A stretch of DNA of 64,000 bases from NCBI RefSeq assembly GCF_003014555.1, contig NZ_PYGE01000005.1, positions 62,001 to 126,000 on the forward strand, given 5' to 3'. Source of the stretch: Haloactinopolyspora alba. GTDB lineage: Bacteria; Actinomycetota; Actinomycetes; Jiangellales; Jiangellaceae. How positions within the stretch are numbered: position 1 is the first letter of the stretch; each line of letters begins with the position of its first letter. Shown in pieces: positions 29,217 through 39,095 of the stretch. Position numbers and translations under genes: made by a program. The notes below the pieces were generated by a model. The model saw nothing but the letters and a program-made list of their open reading frames with translations, had not been told where the DNA came from and did not search any database.

Positions 29217-30608
29217 TCAACCCGCGGTGCAGTCGGTGCAATGCACGTCGTCGACGGGCTCACCGGCGACCAGGTCGGCGGCCCAGTCGGCGAGCGCGGT
29301 GCCGTCGACGGTCTCGGTGTAGAAGGAGCCGTCGCCGAACGCGACGTGGCCGTCGCCGGGGGCGGTGTAGCTGTGCAGGTTCACCCCCGCGTCCTCGATC
29401 CGTGCCTCGTTCGTGTCGATCAAGGTGAGCAGGTCGTCGAAGGGCACTCCGGTGAGGTCGAGGTGCCGTGCCTGGTTCTCGTCGTAGGCGTGGTCGTAGC
29501 GGGCGAACGTGACGTCCGGGGCGTGTCGCGCACTGCGGATGACGAACCCGGGCAGGCTGAAACGGCCGGTGCCCGCGCGGGAGTTCTCGACCCAGCCGGG
29601 GACGGCACCGGCCACACCCCACCCGCTGCCGCTTCCGCTCAGCAGGTCGTTGATCTCCGGAACGTCGGGGTAGGAGCCGGACGAGTCCGCGATCGACGTG
29701 ATCGTGGCTTCCGGCAGCCGGTCCGCCAACATCCCGGCGTAGACCGGCGCGGTCGTCGAGCCGGCGCTGGCGCCGATCACGACGATCTCGGTGGCGTCCG
29801 GGAAGGTCGCCGTCAGGTGGTCGAGGGCGGCGGTGCCGTTGACGAAACCCTTGTGCTCGACGGTGAGATCCGATGCGTACTCGGTGGTGGTGTCGCCGAT
29901 GTGCAGGTCGCCGGTGCAGTACGGGACGAACACGAAGGAGTGGTCGGCGAACGGATTGCGCTCGTCGGCGAAGTCGAACACGCCCTCGCCGTCCGGCCCG
30001 TCGACCGTGCGCTGGTACTCGTTGGCTCCGCCCGGCCGGCACGTCTCCGCCGACCAGCAGACGCCGCCTCCGTCGAGGAACAGGACCACCTTCTCCGGGT
30101 CCGCCTCGCGGGCGTAGAAGCTGAACTCGGAGCCGTCGGCGCAGTTGCAGTCGCCGCCCGGGACGATCTCTTCCCAGCCCGCCGCGGCCGGGGCGACCGT
30201 CTTCTGCTCGCCGGGCTCGACCGAACCACCGGGGTCGCTGGGACGCACACGATCGAGGATGGGTTCGCAGACCGACCGCGCAGCATCCATGCGCTCGCCG
30301 GACGCGAGCTCGGAGACGCCCTCGAAGAAGATGCTGCCGTCGGATTCGACCTTCGGGTCCGGGTAGTCGTCGATGCCCTGCTCGCGCATGCACGTCGCGA
30401 ACTCGTACGCGGCAGCCTCGGCTTCGTCGGTGGCTCCTCCGGCCTCGGTGGGCGGGTCGTCACGGCTGAGGCCGACCGCGGTGACACCGGCGACCACCAC
30501 GAGGGCGACCCCCGCGGCGACGATGCGTCTGCGGCTCAGCCACCGCCGCCAGCCGGTGCTGCTGTCGGTCGTGTCGTCCGGACGCGGCTCGTTTGGTGTG
30601 TCGCCCAT
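29217..30608 (-). CDS. Membrane-anchored pectinacetylesterase-family hydrolase with N-terminal CMREQG domain
   Basis: A 463-residue protein. A cytoplasmic start is followed by one membrane helix (IVAAGVALVVVAGVTAVGL, about residues 29-47). Residues 65-130 hold YEFATCMREQGIDDYPDP, a motif of small actinobacterial envelope proteins. The rest matches pectin/Notum-type acetylesterases: GWEEIVPGGDCNCADGSEFS, VVLFLDGGGVCWSAETC, the nucleophile in VVIGASAGSTTAPVYAGML, and a late D/H pair (YTAPGDGHVAFGDG). It would deacylate an extracellular carbohydrate or lipid. ATG 30608 is chosen; 40 upstream codons look non-coding. It has no close operon partner. Confidence 0.87.
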   Translation of the reverse strand: MGDTPNEPRPDDTTDSSTGWRRWLSRRRIVAAGVALVVVAGVTAVGLSRDDPPTEAGGATDEAEAAAYEFATCMREQGIDDYPDPKVESDGSIFFEGVSELASGERMDAARSVCEPILDRVRPSDPGGSVEPGEQKTVAPAAAGWEEIVPGGDCNCADGSEFSFYAREADPEKVVLFLDGGGVCWSAETCRPGGANEYQRTVDGPDGEGVFDFADERNPFADHSFVFVPYCTGDLHIGDTTTEYASDLTVEHKGFVNGTAALDHLTATFPDATEIVVIGASAGSTTAPVYAGMLADRLPEATITSIADSSGSYPDVPEINDLLSGSGSGWGVAGAVPGWVENSRAGTGRFSLPGFVIRSARHAPDVTFARYDHAYDENQARHLDLTGVPFDDLLTLIDTNEARIEDAGVNLHSYTAPGDGHVAFGDGSFYTETVDGTALADWAADLVAGEPVDDVHCTDCTAG

Positions 30609-30823
30609 GGTGAGTACTCGGCCCTCTCGTCGGTGTGACTCGGCGCTTCGTCCCGTGACGCTAGGTGCGGCCGCCGGTCGGGCACGTCTGTCCGCAGGGG
30701 TATTTCCACTACCGCGTTCGGGTGACACCGGCTCACGTCATCCGCGAGATGTAGTCGGTGGATGTACGCCCTGGTGTCTCACGGTCGGATGCCGCCGGAA
30801 GTGTGGTCGTGGACAATCAGCTG

Positions 30824-32071
30824 ATGCGACCCTTGCTGCGTGCCGTGGCGGTTGCCCTGACGAGGGCAACCGGGCCGCGACCGCAGCCGAGCCGCCGCAG
30901 TCTGGCCTTCGACATCGGCCTCGCGTTCGCCATGAGCGTCGCTACCGTTCTGTACGCCCACGTCGGCGTCGGCGACCAGGACGTCGCGTTCGTCGTCGGC
31001 ACGGAGCCCGGCATCCCACCGTCCCCGCCCGACCAGACGACGAGCGCGGTCGTGGTGGCGGTCGTCGCCGCCGCCGCGTTGGTGTTCCGCCGGCGGTACC
31101 CGCTGGCGGTTCTGTGGGTGGTGCTCGCCGCCACCATGACCGCGTCCACGGACGAGCCGAGCCTCACGTTCCTCGCGTGTGTGATCGCGGCGTTCTCGGC
31201 CGCGGCGTACAGCCCGTACCGGGTGCCGACGCTGGCGAGTGTGGCGGGAGCAGCGGTGTTGTTCGGCGTGTTCGTCGACTCGGTCTTCCCCGTCGTGCCG
31301 GCGGAATACGCCCCGTTGATCGTCCTGGTGCCGATCGCCGTGGCCGCCGACGGGCTGCGGCGCTGGAAGCTGCGGGCCGACGAACGCAGTGCTCGGCTGG
31401 CCGAGTTCGAACGCGAGCAGGCCGAGGCGTTGCGGCGTGCCGCCGAGGACGAACGCGCGCGGATCGCCCGTGAACTGCACGACGTCGTGACGCACAACGT
31501 CAGCGTCATGGTCATCCAGGCCGGAGCCGCGCGCAAGGTCATGGAGGCGGCGCCGGAACGGGCCGGCGAGGCGCTGCTGGCCGTCGAATCCGGCGGCAGG
31601 GCGGCGCTGGCGGAGCTGCGTCAGGTCATGGGCCTGCTGACGACCGACAACGGCGACGACGAAGCGGCCGAGCTGGCGCCGCAACCGACCTTGGCGTCGC
31701 TGTCGAACCTCGTGACACGCCTTCGGGATGCCGGCATGGACGTCGATCTGACGGTGCGCGGGCGCGAACGTCCATTGCCGGGCGGAATCGAGCTCGCCGC
31801 ATATCGGGTGGTGCAGGAGGCACTGACCAACACCGCCAAACATGCGTCCGGCGCGTGGGCCGGCGTGACCGTCGACTACGGTGACGACGAACTGCTCGTC
31901 GCCGTCGTCGACACCGCCGGCACCGCGGGCGAGGCCGCGTCGTCCGGCAACGGTCGAGGGCTGATCGGCCTGCGTGAACGCCTGGCGGTGTACGGAGGAA
32001 CGTTGGTCGCGGGGCGCACCGGCGCCGGCGGGTACCAAGTGGCCGCGTCGATTCCCCTGGAGGGGGCATGA
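30824..32071 (+). CDS. NarL/DesK-type sensor histidine kinase
   Basis: A 415-residue kinase. Four or five membrane segments fill residues 20-165 (DIGLAFAMSVATVLYAHVGV, AVVVAVVAAAALVF, LAVLWVVLAATMTA, ASVAGAAVLFGVFVD, LIVLVPIAVAADGL). The H-box is RARIARELHDVVTHNVSVMV (HisKA_3 type) and the ATPase N-box is QEALTNTAKHA; NGRGLIGLRERLAVYGG is the G-box. ATG 30824 is chosen; longer frames start near 30758. Its stop overlaps the response regulator start by ATGA, so the two proteins are made together. Signal unknown. Confidence 0.92.
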   Translation: MRPLLRAVAVALTRATGPRPQPSRRSLAFDIGLAFAMSVATVLYAHVGVGDQDVAFVVGTEPGIPPSPPDQTTSAVVVAVVAAAALVFRRRYPLAVLWVVLAATMTASTDEPSLTFLACVIAAFSAAAYSPYRVPTLASVAGAAVLFGVFVDSVFPVVPAEYAPLIVLVPIAVAADGLRRWKLRADERSARLAEFEREQAEALRRAAEDERARIARELHDVVTHNVSVMVIQAGAARKVMEAAPERAGEALLAVESGGRAALAELRQVMGLLTTDNGDDEAAELAPQPTLASLSNLVTRLRDAGMDVDLTVRGRERPLPGGIELAAYRVVQEALTNTAKHASGAWAGVTVDYGDDELLVAVVDTAGTAGEAASSGNGRGLIGLRERLAVYGGTLVAGRTGAGGYQVAASIPLEGA

Positions 32072-32760
32072 CCGAACCGGTGCGCGTGGTGATCGCCGAT
32101 GATCAGACCTTGGTGCGCACGGGTTTCCGGATGATTCTCGACGCTGATGGTATGGACGTCGTGGCCGAGGCGACGACCGGAGCCGAGGCGGTCGAAGCGG
32201 TGCGCAGGACCCGCCCCGACGTGGTCCTGATGGACATCCGGATGCCCGAGCTGGACGGGCTCGAGGCCACTCGCCGTATTCTCACCGGTGCGGCGGACGC
32301 ACCCCGGGTCGTCATCCTGACGACGTTCGACCTCGACCGCTACGTGTACGCGGCGCTTTCGGCCGGAGCCAGCGGCTTCCTCCTCAAGGACGTCACACCC
32401 GAGGCGCTGACCTCCGCCGTGCGCAGCGTGCAGGTCGGCGACGCGCTGCTGGCGCCGGCCATCACCCGTCGCCTGGTTGAACGATTCGCGCACCGCGACG
32501 GCGACGCAGCCTCACTGCACCGTGATCTCGGCGCCTTGACGCCGCGCGAACTCGAGGTGCTGGGTCTGCTGGCGCGCGGCCTGAGCAACGCGGAGCTGGC
32601 CGAACGTCTCTGTCTGTCCGGACCGACCGTCAAGACGCACGTCACCCGCATCCTCGCGAAGCTCGGCCTCCGCGACCGGGTCCAAGCCGTGATCACCGCT
32701 TATGAGACCGGTCTGGTCAGCGTCGGCAGCGGTCCGCAGGATCGCCCGTACGACGAGTGA
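32068..32760 (+). CDS. NarL/LuxR-type response regulator
   Basis: A 230-residue regulator coupled to the kinase upstream through an ATGA overlap. The receiver has VVIADDQTLVRTGFRMIL (acid pocket), the phospho-Asp in DVVLMDIRMPELDGLEATRR and Lys in SGFLLKDVTPEAL. The C-terminal LuxR HTH is LTPRELEVLGLLARGLSNAE and LCLSGPTVKTHVTRILAKLG. Its targets cannot be read from the sequence; no adjacent ABC transporter or other usual target gene is present. Confidence 0.93.
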   Translation: MTEPVRVVIADDQTLVRTGFRMILDADGMDVVAEATTGAEAVEAVRRTRPDVVLMDIRMPELDGLEATRRILTGAADAPRVVILTTFDLDRYVYAALSAGASGFLLKDVTPEALTSAVRSVQVGDALLAPAITRRLVERFAHRDGDAASLHRDLGALTPRELEVLGLLARGLSNAELAERLCLSGPTVKTHVTRILAKLGLRDRVQAVITAYETGLVSVGSGPQDRPYDE

Positions 32761-33572: not shown

Positions 33573-33785
33573 CGTACGCCGTACGCGTTTTGTTTGCGGG
33601 AGACGGCCAGCGTTTCCTGCATGGTGACGCTGCTGGCAACGAATGCCAGCTGTGTCGCCCCCTCGACATGCGGCCGCAAGCCTTGGCGTCGCGCGCGGAG
33701 CCGGTTTCGCGAGGCTCGAGGCGCGTGCCTCAGGTCGTCGGGCGCGCTTCAGTGCGTCGATGTGGTCGAGATCGTAATGCGGCAT
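33569..33785 (-). pseudogene. Frameshifted small gene upstream of the VOC remnant
   Basis: ATG 33785 opens MPHYDLDHIDALKR; the frame must then shift by one base to continue R-L-R-A-R-R-Q-G-L-R-P-H-V-E-G and TQLAFVASSVTMQETLAVSR, ending KQNAYGVR just before a stop that overlaps the VOC start as GTGA. The total, 217 bases, is one more than a multiple of three. About 71 residues would result. I do not recognise the family. The overlap suggests that it once formed an operon with the VOC gene. Confidence 0.5.
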
Positions 33786-36693
33786 GATGTGGCGGATGCC
33801 CGAGTCCGCGCCACCGGCCGAGCCGGATCCCGCGCCGGCGGCAGCGTGGGCGACCGTGACGTATCCGCGGCAGTTCCGCACGCACCAACGACAGGCGCTC
33901 GATGCCATCGACACGGCTGTCGCGTCCGGTGCGCGCCGGGCCTGGGTCGTGCTGCCACCGGGCGCCGGCAAGACGCTGGTCGGGCTCGAAGCCGCGCGTC
34001 GCGTCGGCCGGCCGATCGTGGCGTTCGGGCCGAACACCGCGATCCAGGGCCAGTGGCTCGCCGCCTGGCGGGAGTTCACGCCGGCGGCGTTGCCGGCCGG
34101 CACCGCGCGCGACCTGTCCGCGCCGGTCACCGCGCTGACCTACCAGTCGCTGGCGAACTTCGACCCGGACGCCGAGGTCGACGAGGACGGCCGTGCGCAC
34201 CTGCCGAAGGCGGGCGGCAAGCGTCGCGGCGGGCTACGCGATCGGCTGCACGACAACGGGCGCGCCCTGGTGGAGGCGCTCGAGAACGCCGGTCCGGTCA
34301 CGCTCGTCCTCGACGAGTGTCACCACCTGCTCGAGGTGTGGGGGCGGCTGCTGGCCGAACTGCTCGAGGACCTCCCGCAGGCCCACGTCATCGGCCTGAC
34401 CGGTACGCCGCCGGACACCCTGACGGCCGAGCAGTCCCGGCTCGTCGACGAGCTGTTCGGCTCCCCGCTCTACAGCACGTCCATCCCGTCGGTGGTGCGC
34501 GAAGGCAACCTCGCGCCGTTCGCCGAGCTCGCGTGGTTCACCGAGCCGACCCCGACCGAGTCACAGTGGCTGGCCGCGCAGGCCGAGCGGTTCGCCGAGC
34601 TCCGCACCGACCTGCTCGAGGCGGACACGGAGTTCCTGCCGTGGCTGGACCGCCGGTTCGTGTCGCGGCCGGTCAGCGGGCTCGGAGCCGAATCCCCGGC
34701 GGTGGCCTGGTCGAGGGTCGAACGCGACGAGCCCGAGCGAGCGGCCGCCGCACTACGGTTCCACCACGCCGGCCTGCTGGCGCTGCCGCCCGGGGCGGCC
34801 CTGCGCGAGGAACACCGGGTCGAGCCGACGGCGGACGACTGGGTCGCGCTGCTCGGTGAGTACCTCACGGCGCGGCTGCTGCCGTCGTCGGACCCGGACG
34901 ACCAGGCGGTGGTCGAGAAGATCCGGGCGGCGCTGCCGAGCGTCGGTTACCAGCTGACCAAACGCGGCATCCGCCGCGGCCGGTCGCCGGTCGACCGTGT
35001 GCTCGCCCGCAGCGAGGCGAAGACCGACGCGGCGGCCGAGATCATGGCCGCCGAATCGGACGCGCTCGGATCCCGGCTGCGCGGCCTGGTGCTGTGCGAC
35101 CACGAACGTGCGTCGGCGACGCTACCGGCCCGGTTGCGCGGCGTGCTGGACGCCGAGGCCGGTTCGGCGCGGCTGGTCCTGTCGAACCTGCTGGCCGATC
35201 CACGGACCGCTGCGCTGGAACCGGTGCTGATCACCGGCCGCGCCGTCGCCGCCGACGCCGGGACCGCCCGCAAGCTGGTGGCGTTCGTCGCCGAGCACGC
35301 ACCCGAGATCGAGCTGGACGAGATCCTGCCGGACGCCGTCGGCGCGGTCGACGTGACCGGACAGTGGAGTTCCCGCCGCTGGGTGCCGCTGGTGACCCGG
35401 TTCTACGAGACCGGCGCCGCGCAGGTGCTGGTCGGCACCCGCGCGCTGCTCGGCGAGGGGTGGGACGCGCGCGGCGTGAACACGCTGGTGGACCTGACGA
35501 CGGCGACCACGCCGACCGCGGTGGTCCAGACCCGCGGGCGGGCCCTGCGCGTCGACCCGGAGTGGCCGGAGAAGGTGGCCAACACCTGGACCGTCGTCTG
35601 CGTGTCCGAGGAACACCCCGGCGGGGCCGGCGACTGGCACCGGTTCGTCCGCAAGCATCACGGCTATTTCGCCGTCACCGACAACGGCGAGATCGCCTCC
35701 GGCGTCGGCCACGTCGACCCGTGGCTGTCGCCGTACGCGCCTCCGCCCGCGAGCACGTTCGCCGACGAGAACGAGGCGATGTGCGCCCGGGCGCAGAACC
35801 GCGCGCGAGTGCGCGAGCTGTGGCAGGTCGGCACCCCGTACCGCGACGAGCTGGTGCACACGATCCGCGTCATCCCGACCAGCCAGGCGCGGCGGACCGC
35901 GCCGCGGGAACCGGAACCAGGCGCGCCGCAGCCTCCCTCGTGGGTGTCCGCACGGGAAGCAGCGAGAAGGCCCTGGCCGGACCTCGGGGCCGGGCCGGCG
36001 CCGCCGCGTCGAGGTCTCGCCGCTTTGGCGACCGCCGTCGCGCTGATTGTCGGCGCCGTCGGGGTGGTGGCAGGGCTGTGGTGGCTCCCGGTGGCAATGG
36101 CGGCGGTGCCCGCCGCGGCGTGGTGGCGCTGGGTGTCCGCCCTCCGTGCCGCGAGCCTGGCGGCCGGGCGGGAACTGGCCGCGTTGGCCGACGGTCCGGA
36201 TCCGCTCGCGTTCGGCTACGCGGTGGCCGACGCCATGCAGGACCTGGGGCTTTCGGAGCGCGGAGCCGACGCCGTCAGCGGCGTCGTCGAGGCGGACGGC
36301 TCGTACACGATCGCGCTCAACGGCGTGGACATGGAGACGTCGCGCCGGTTCACGACCGCGCTGGACGAGGTGTTCGCGCCGCTGACCGCGCCCCGGTGGG
36401 TCATCGCCCGGTTCGTCACCGATCCGCTGCCGGACGACGACGCGGTGCGCGCTGCCGGGCTTGCCTGGCTGCGCAGGACGGCCGAGCCGAATGCGATCGT
36501 CTATCACGCGGTTCCGGCCGGGTTCTCGAGCAGCAGCGCCCGGGTGAACGCGTTCGTCCACGCGTGGAACCGCTGGGTGAGCACCGGTCTGGCCACCATG
36601 ATGACCGGGCCGGTCGCCGAATCCATCCTGGCCACGCATCGTGGCGCCGACCCGTTCGCTGCGACGACCGCCCTGCGGATCGACTGGAGCTGA
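33784..36693 (+). CDS. SF2 DEAD/DEAH-type helicase with C-terminal membrane segments
   Basis: A 969-residue protein. The SF2 core has Q/I-region FRTHQRQALDAIDTA, Walker A VVLPPGAGKTLVGLEAARR (near residue 58), DECHH box in LVLDECHHLLEVW (near 176), motif III-like LTGTP, and C-terminal motifs VLVGTRALLGEGWDARG and QTRGRALR (near 581). This resembles the ResIII/XPB-like group. After residue 700 come a Pro-rich linker and hydrophobic segments at about 742-785 (LAALATAVALIVGAVGVVAG, WWLPVAMAAVPAAAWW), then a 180-residue domain with no recognised motif. ATG 33796 is an alternative start. The role is unknown; DNA or RNA remodelling at the membrane is an inference. Confidence 0.82.
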   Translation: MMWRMPESAPPAEPDPAPAAAWATVTYPRQFRTHQRQALDAIDTAVASGARRAWVVLPPGAGKTLVGLEAARRVGRPIVAFGPNTAIQGQWLAAWREFTPAALPAGTARDLSAPVTALTYQSLANFDPDAEVDEDGRAHLPKAGGKRRGGLRDRLHDNGRALVEALENAGPVTLVLDECHHLLEVWGRLLAELLEDLPQAHVIGLTGTPPDTLTAEQSRLVDELFGSPLYSTSIPSVVREGNLAPFAELAWFTEPTPTESQWLAAQAERFAELRTDLLEADTEFLPWLDRRFVSRPVSGLGAESPAVAWSRVERDEPERAAAALRFHHAGLLALPPGAALREEHRVEPTADDWVALLGEYLTARLLPSSDPDDQAVVEKIRAALPSVGYQLTKRGIRRGRSPVDRVLARSEAKTDAAAEIMAAESDALGSRLRGLVLCDHERASATLPARLRGVLDAEAGSARLVLSNLLADPRTAALEPVLITGRAVAADAGTARKLVAFVAEHAPEIELDEILPDAVGAVDVTGQWSSRRWVPLVTRFYETGAAQVLVGTRALLGEGWDARGVNTLVDLTTATTPTAVVQTRGRALRVDPEWPEKVANTWTVVCVSEEHPGGAGDWHRFVRKHHGYFAVTDNGEIASGVGHVDPWLSPYAPPPASTFADENEAMCARAQNRARVRELWQVGTPYRDELVHTIRVIPTSQARRTAPREPEPGAPQPPSWVSAREAARRPWPDLGAGPAPPRRGLAALATAVALIVGAVGVVAGLWWLPVAMAAVPAAAWWRWVSALRAASLAAGRELAALADGPDPLAFGYAVADAMQDLGLSERGADAVSGVVEADGSYTIALNGVDMETSRRFTTALDEVFAPLTAPRWVIARFVTDPLPDDDAVRAAGLAWLRRTAEPNAIVYHAVPAGFSSSSARVNAFVHAWNRWVSTGLATMMTGPVAESILATHRGADPFAATTALRIDWS

Positions 36694-38810: not shown

Positions 38811-39095
38811 TTACAGCACTTCGACGCGGGCGTGGTGCCCACTGGCTCGGCCGACGCGGGCGTCGCGCGTGACCAGCGGACAGTCCAACGCTTCGGCCAG
38901 TGCCACGTACGAGGCGTCGTAGGCGGACAGGTTGTGTCCCAGGTGCAATGTCCGGCGACGAAAAGCGTCCGACGCCCACCATCGTTCGACGGGCAGATCA
39001 TCGAAATCGGTCAGCACGTCGTGTGCCCGTGAATCGCTGAGGTGACCGCCGATTCTCAGGCCACGAACCGCGGAGACCACCTCGTAGTCGAGCCC
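38811..39095 (-). pseudogene. VapC-like PIN-domain toxin, 5' truncated
   Basis: The frame reads L-D-Y-E-V-V-S-A-V-R-G-L then NLSAYDASYVALAEALDCPL and TRDARVGRASGHHARVEVL, the C-terminal two thirds of a PIN nuclease. The first 40-45 residues with the leading catalytic Asp are missing: in frame, the codons begin directly after the TGA stop of xthA. GTG 39080 could start a short product. No antitoxin gene is adjacent. The toxin is almost certainly inactive. Confidence 0.75.

What the first reader, a model, noticed from the sequence alone, without database searches (positions are those of the whole stretch)
33784..36693. SF2 helicase with membrane segments and an unknown C-terminal domain
Walker A, DECH and motif VI are intact, but the protein continues through a Pro-rich linker into two hydrophobic segments and a 180-residue domain that I cannot assign. 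A membrane-tethered SF2 helicase is unusual; possible roles include phage-DNA sensing at entry, DNA uptake, or RNA handling at the membrane. It has no partner gene, so it would act alone.
Basis: partly seen in the sequence, partly recalled or inferred. Interest (0 to 1): 0.6.

Follow-up and report, generated by a model that had tools for sequence, protein, structure and literature searches.

The report
Membrane-hairpin helicase with orphan tail domain
This gene encodes a DNA-motor protein (related to the repair helicase XPB) that is probably pinned to the inner face of the cell membrane by a hairpin and ends in a domain of no known family; the same design is shared by many actinobacteria, Chloroflexota and some Firmicutes, but what it does has not been shown.

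Summary
Window 33784-36693 (+) encodes a 969-aa protein: intact XPB-like SF2 motor (Walker A, DECH, motifs III, V, VI), a helical insert that looks winged-helix-like, a Pro-rich linker, a two-helix hydrophobic hairpin (about 743-783) and a 186-aa C-terminal domain that matches no Pfam, NCBIfam, PADLOC or PDB sequence family and no solved fold at significance, although its model is confident (pLDDT 89). It is not a one-off: at least 105 stretches in Actinomycetota, Chloroflexota and relatives encode relatives, and Paenibacillus plus two gut contigs carry the same three-part layout. Flanking charges fit a hairpin with motor and tail both cytoplasmic. The hairpin is old but separable: a clean deletion of about 45 residues occurred in three lineages, with the tail kept. 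The gene is single-copy, patchy, and has no conserved partner; neighbours change even inside one genus. Some contexts hold defence systems (Wadjet, BREX, AbiE), others repair genes (uvrA, lhr/nei2, AdnAB-like). Best reading: a stand-alone, membrane-tethered duplex-DNA translocase for accessory genome protection; anti-invader slightly ahead of repair, neither shown. A known motor in a new, widespread, unnamed architecture.

The parts
33784..36693 (+). whole gene, 969 aa (start codon uncertain; relatives begin matching at residue 18-31)
33868..34545 (+). RecA-like motor domain 1 (residues 29-254) with Walker A and DECH
   Evidence: Pfam ResIII 31-210; structure match to XPB Z 18.5 over 17-665
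33955..33975 (+). Walker A PPGAGKT, residues 58-64
   Evidence: P58, G60, G62, K63, T64 invariant in 34 aligned sequences
34312..34323 (+). motif II DECH, residues 177-180
   Evidence: invariant in 34 aligned sequences
34546..35079 (+). helical insert between the two motor domains (residues 255-432); residues 350-398 look like a winged helix (helix-helix-beta hairpin)
   Evidence: well-conserved insert (mean column identity 51%); secondary structure of model; no sequence match in PDB, so winged helix is inference
35080..35703 (+). RecA-like motor domain 2 (residues 433-640)
   Evidence: Helicase_C
35434..35466 (+). motif V GTRALLGEGWD, residues 551-561
35527..35550 (+). motif VI QTRGRALR, residues 582-589
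35884..36009 (+). Pro-rich low-confidence linker, residues 701-742
   Evidence: variable in relatives; low pLDDT
36010..36132 (+). hydrophobic hairpin, residues 743-783 (helices 743-762 and 767-801 in the model), probably two membrane spans with both ends cytoplasmic
   Evidence: missing in seven relatives
36133..36690 (+). orphan C-terminal domain, residues 784-969, order alpha-alpha-beta-beta-alpha-beta-alpha-beta-alpha-beta-alpha plus a last strand
   Evidence: pLDDT 89.1 alone; no family, no PDB or viral fold; conserved to Paenibacillus

Best explanation
A stand-alone ATP-driven duplex-DNA translocase of XPB/RadD-like type. The motor lies in the cytoplasm and binds DNA through its two RecA domains and the winged-helix-like insert. 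A two-span hairpin holds it on the inner membrane face, so the polypeptide returns to the cytoplasm and the C-terminal domain packs against, or near, the motor as a regulatory or target-recognising module (it has no conserved catalytic-looking acidic or histidine residues). It is an accessory genome-protection factor that acts on DNA near the membrane, more likely invading DNA (phage or plasmid) than the cell's own lesions. Shown or strongly supported: architecture, family, hairpin and its separability, single gene. Inferred: DNA rather than RNA, cytoplasmic tail, regulation by the tail. Least certain: the biological role.
For: Motor: best structural matches are XPB in TFIIH and archaeal XPB (Z 18.5-17, 374 residues at 3.2 A for 8ebs), with sequence-profile hits to XPB and RadD. 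Full-length model pTM 0.86. Hairpin; Lys+Arg 0.21 and 0.25 per residue in the flanks against 0.011 in the core. Tail homologous in Paenibacillus (hhalign E 1.6e-16). Hairpin present in the outgroup, with three losses on the tree. Accessory pattern: 13 of 22 genomes of the family, and within one genus (g4) 8 of 12 have it; its tail in 3 of 149 Actinomycetota genomes including its own; about 6 of 151 Chloroflexota genomes; two genomes of genus g4 share the genes on one side of it but not on the other (L152, L153). Defence neighbours: JetA/B/C directly downstream in Brevibacterium, BrxC and BrxA close by in L145, AbiEi/AbiEii in L028. A control set of 141 more distant genes held no comparable Wadjet, BREX or AbiE hit.
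Against: Most neighbours are ordinary metabolic genes, and defence neighbours are few (two contexts in the scanned set plus one found later), so the association is anecdotal. Several contexts are repair genes. No nuclease or other effector domain was found, so it is not obvious how a lone translocase would stop a phage. Membrane location is predicted, not measured, and seven relatives do without the hairpin. DNA against RNA was not tested; Foldseek alone ranks RIG-I-like RNA sensors (LGP2, MDA5) at the top.
Confidence: 0.4

Rival explanations
1. Accessory DNA-repair translocase: it remodels damaged DNA or repair complexes of the cell's own chromosome, possibly at membrane-attached sites, like a specialised XPB or RadD.
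For: Nearest motors are repair helicases. Contexts with repair genes: Lhr-type helicase, this gene and Nei2 in tandem in L073; two UvrD/AdnAB-like helicases directly upstream in L019; directly upstream of uvrA in L149, and beside an MBL-fold gene next to a divergent uvrA in four Streptomyces; Exo_endo_phos-like gene directly upstream in several Nocardioides.
Against: Patchy, variably placed and often absent from close relatives, unlike core repair genes. Repair genes make up a few percent of any genome, so a handful among some 45 contexts may be chance; no baseline was computed for them. A membrane anchor is not needed for repair.
Confidence: 0.35
2. The hydrophobic hairpin is not a membrane anchor but an oligomerisation or packing element of a soluble protein.
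For: It is Ala/Gly/Val-rich, its hydrophobicity is marginal in some relatives (for example L066, L058, L087), and it is lost cleanly three times with motor and tail kept.
Against: Strong in most members, including this one; charges are nearly absent from the core and Lys/Arg-rich on both sides; Paenibacillus and gut relatives have longer, clearly hydrophobic segments.
Confidence: 0.15
3. RNA helicase acting on transcripts or viral RNA at the membrane.
For: Foldseek alone ranks RIG-I-like helicases first; motif VI QxRGRxxR resembles theirs (own knowledge).
Against: The second structural look and profile searches favour XPB-type DNA motors; the neighbours with informative functions concern DNA.
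Confidence: 0.1

Closest known systems
XPB / Rad25 helicases (bacterial, archaeal, TFIIH)
   Same: Order and fold of both RecA domains; best structural score (Z 18.5); weak NCBIfam hit (29 bits against a cut-off of 610)
   Different: Far below the family cut-off; helical insert, membrane hairpin and orphan C-terminal domain are extra
RadD (YejH) DNA repair helicase
   Same: SF2 motor, profile hit to PDB 6jde
   Different: 16 bits against a cut-off of 720; no hairpin or tail of this kind
ResIII / type I restriction R subunits (HsdR, EcoAI)
   Same: Pfam ResIII, 49 bits
   Different: No nuclease domain recognised; no HsdM or HsdS gene next to it
Membrane-localised DNA-targeting defences: Zorya, Kiwa, SNIPE (reviewed in PMC12904381)
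   Same: Idea of acting on DNA at the inner membrane
   Different: Those combine a membrane sensor with DNA-binding or nuclease components; here one protein, an SF2 motor, no recognised nuclease, no sequence match in PADLOC beyond the generic motor

Membership tests
SF2 helicase/translocase superfamily | Walker A, DExH, motifs III, V, VI in two RecA-like domains | tested here: met
XPB (NF045503) | Score above the curated cut-off (610 bits) | tested here: not met
   29.4 bits
XPB (NF045503) | XPB-like arrangement of the two motor domains | tested here: met
   Z 18.5, 374 residues, 3.2 A; shows likeness of the motor, not membership
RadD (NF053632) | Score above the curated cut-off (720 bits) | tested here: not met
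   16 bits
Type I/III restriction R subunit | Nuclease domain fused to the motor | tested here: not met
   No nuclease family in Pfam or NCBIfam scans; tail lacks conserved acidic residues
Type I/III restriction R subunit | Modification/specificity partner genes | tested here: not met
   none among window neighbours nor conserved in relatives
Known anti-phage systems in PADLOC | Whole-protein match to a system component | tested here: not met
   best 25 bits to PbeA over motor motifs only
Membrane-localised defence (Zorya, Kiwa, SNIPE) | Membrane location | tested here: inconclusive
   predicted only
Membrane-localised defence (Zorya, Kiwa, SNIPE) | Protects against phage | not testable with these tools
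   needs a bench assay
This family itself (motor + hairpin + tail) | Motor and tail together | tested here: met
   70 near-full-length relatives; Paenibacillus tail E 1.6e-16
This family itself (motor + hairpin + tail) | Hairpin always present | tested here: not met
   absent in seven relatives, three changes on the tree

The most novel reading that the evidence does not exclude
A new single-protein immune or genome-guarding system spread over Actinomycetota, Chloroflexota and Bacillota, in which an XPB-like DNA motor is anchored at the membrane to engage DNA as it enters and a previously undescribed C-terminal domain decides what is attacked or halted.
Probability: 0.28. Interest if true: 0.78.

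Novelty: new variant of a known kind. Interest (0 to 1): 0.52.

Why it matters
SF2 motors are among the best-studied nucleic-acid machines, yet no described family searched here joins one to a membrane hairpin and this tail. The architecture spans at least three phyla and natural relatives have lost only the hairpin, which gives ready-made comparisons for asking what membrane attachment adds to a DNA motor. If it protects against phages or plasmids it would be a one-gene system of a new design. If it is a repair factor it would point to repair at the membrane.

Tried and rejected
C-terminal domain against Pfam, PDB sequences, PDB folds and viral folds: nothing significant; a partial likeness (Z at most 5.1, 57-66 residues, model residues 14-82) to OsmC/Ohr-type, secretin (HofQ), MscS-like and SecDF domains is tied across unrelated folds and is not used. 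Insert against PDB: nothing. Phage origin: no full-length relative in IMG/VR with either query (one search hits are weak matches to motor pieces); the two 'phage' records are unverified gut contigs whose neighbours show nothing phage-like except possibly an Xre-type regulator in L089. Plasmid spread: only one Paenibacillus megaplasmid relative covers the motor. Partner gene: clustering of neighbours across 81 loci gave only genus-level synteny. PADLOC hits to mads_2 and DnaG-like models occur in the control too or are explained by housekeeping proteins and were discarded. Larger genome samples failed on the tool side. Literature: no paper in the held library was found that describes a membrane-bound bacterial helicase of this kind.

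Full report
What is there. The ORF at 33784-36693 (+) is a real gene: 969 open codons, strong third-position GC bias, single copy in its 5.5-Mb genome, and a 71% identical copy in the other held genome of its genus. It has all the SF2 motor motifs, and the key residues of each are invariant in 34 aligned sequences. Pfam assigns ResIII and Helicase_C; NCBIfam gives only weak XPB, EcoAI, Dnd and RadD hits far under their cut-offs.

Relatives. A scan of one genome per species found 105 stretches that encode relatives, 80 kept: Jiangellaceae, Nocardioides, Aeromicrobium, Marmoricola, Brevibacterium, Streptomyces, Actinospica, Frankiales, and Chloroflexota, Thermomicrobiota and Dormiibacterota MAGs. 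A Paenibacillus plasmid gene (annotated 'DEAD/DEAH box helicase family protein') and two unverified gut contigs carry motor, two hydrophobic helices and tail at about 26% identity over the motor. The tails are homologous across that gap: hhalign of the actinobacterial tail profile with the Paenibacillus tail gives E 1.6e-16. Motor and tail therefore have travelled together since before the split of these groups, or have been exchanged as a unit.

Structure. AlphaFold2 with 34 sequences gives pLDDT 87.7, pTM 0.86 for the whole protein and 89.1 for the tail alone. The motor matches XPB in TFIIH best (Z 18.5), though Foldseek alone puts RIG-I-like RNA sensors first. The insert between the RecA domains (255-432) is well conserved, with invariant residues of its own, and contains a helix-helix-beta-hairpin stretch that I read as a winged helix (inference; no PDB sequence match). 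The tail has no significant match among PDB or viral folds; absence of a match does not show that the fold is new.

The hairpin. Residues 743-783 form two hydrophobic stretches. Composition alone seldom gives this (55/5000 and 12/5000 shuffles). Hydrophobic stretches recur at the same place, in spite of poor sequence conservation, in most relatives. In 58 members with a long core, Lys+Arg run at 0.21 and 0.25 per residue in the two flanks and 0.011 in the core: by the positive-inside rule (established knowledge) both ends face the cytoplasm. Seven relatives (L017, L020, L033, L052, L056, L063, L070) lack it, with a linker region of about 50 residues instead of about 95. On a motor tree rooted on the Paenibacillus and gut branch, which has the hairpin, this needs three changes (quick tree, one long outgroup branch). 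So the hairpin is probably ancestral and dispensable in some hosts. That weakens any claim that the protein must be at the membrane to work, and gives natural controls.

Distribution and neighbours. The gene is in 13 of 22 genomes of its family (8 of 12 in one genus), while a sample of 149 Actinomycetota gave 3 tail matches including its own genome and 151 Chloroflexota gave about 6 true members. Clustering neighbours of 81 loci shows only genus-level synteny: glnA-glnE side in some Nocardioides, Wadjet side in Brevibacterium, MBL-fold gene beside uvrA in Streptomyces. Two genomes of one genus share the genes on one side and differ on the other (L152, L153). In the window the neighbours are a VOC-type gene, an MFS transporter and a GDT1 transporter. 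There is thus no conserved partner: 'acts alone' is the best reading. Defence genes next to it: JetA/B/C, BrxC/BrxA, AbiEi/ii; a control of 141 more distant genes had none of these, but two or three contexts are too few for statistics. Repair genes next to it: Lhr-type helicase and Nei2 in tandem with it in L073, UvrD/AdnAB-like pair in L019, uvrA in L149 and, with MBL, in Streptomyces. The gene was not found as a phage gene.

How it most likely works. ATP hydrolysis by the XPB-like motor drives movement on duplex DNA; the hairpin confines it to the membrane face; the tail, which has conserved Gly, Pro, Arg, Trp but no conserved acidic cluster and so is unlikely to be a nuclease, controls or targets the motor. 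The accessory, shifting, single-gene pattern and some defence contexts favour a role against incoming DNA; the motor's kinship and other contexts favour repair. I put 0.40 on the first and 0.35 on the second. Neither is shown.

Compared with what is known. The motor is ordinary; the combination is not in the libraries searched, and no paper found in the held library describes it. Zorya, Kiwa and SNIPE show that acting on DNA at the inner membrane is a real strategy (PMC12904381), but this protein shows no sequence match to any of them; it may work in a like manner, it is not shown to be one of them.

Noticed in passing
L064:7902-10856: In Brevibacterium linens ATCC 9172 the helicase ORF is split into two reading frames while the Wadjet genes downstream remain.
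   Followed up: no
L103 (about 1007-1728): A remnant: a piece with the DECH motif followed, in another frame, by a hydrophobic segment and the end of the tail domain, i.e. an internally deleted copy.
   Followed up: no
L077:3914-4432, L074:10947-12191, L087:10966-13022: By eye, PspA/IM30-like coiled-coil genes lie next to the helicase in L077 (overlapping its stop) and L074 (convergent), and NfeD-like plus SPFH/flotillin-like genes follow it in L087: membrane-stress genes in three separate loci. Not tested with family models.
   Followed up: partly
L055, L065, L068 (and L064): In Brevibacterium an MmcQ/YjbR-like gene lies directly upstream of the helicase and Wadjet jetABC directly downstream on the same strand.
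   Followed up: partly
window 38811-39080 (-): Short PIN-domain ORF (89 aa), possibly a VapC toxin fragment.
   Followed up: no
window 29217-30728 (-): Pectinacetylesterase-family protein beside a histidine kinase/LuxR-type response regulator pair (30758-32760).
   Followed up: no
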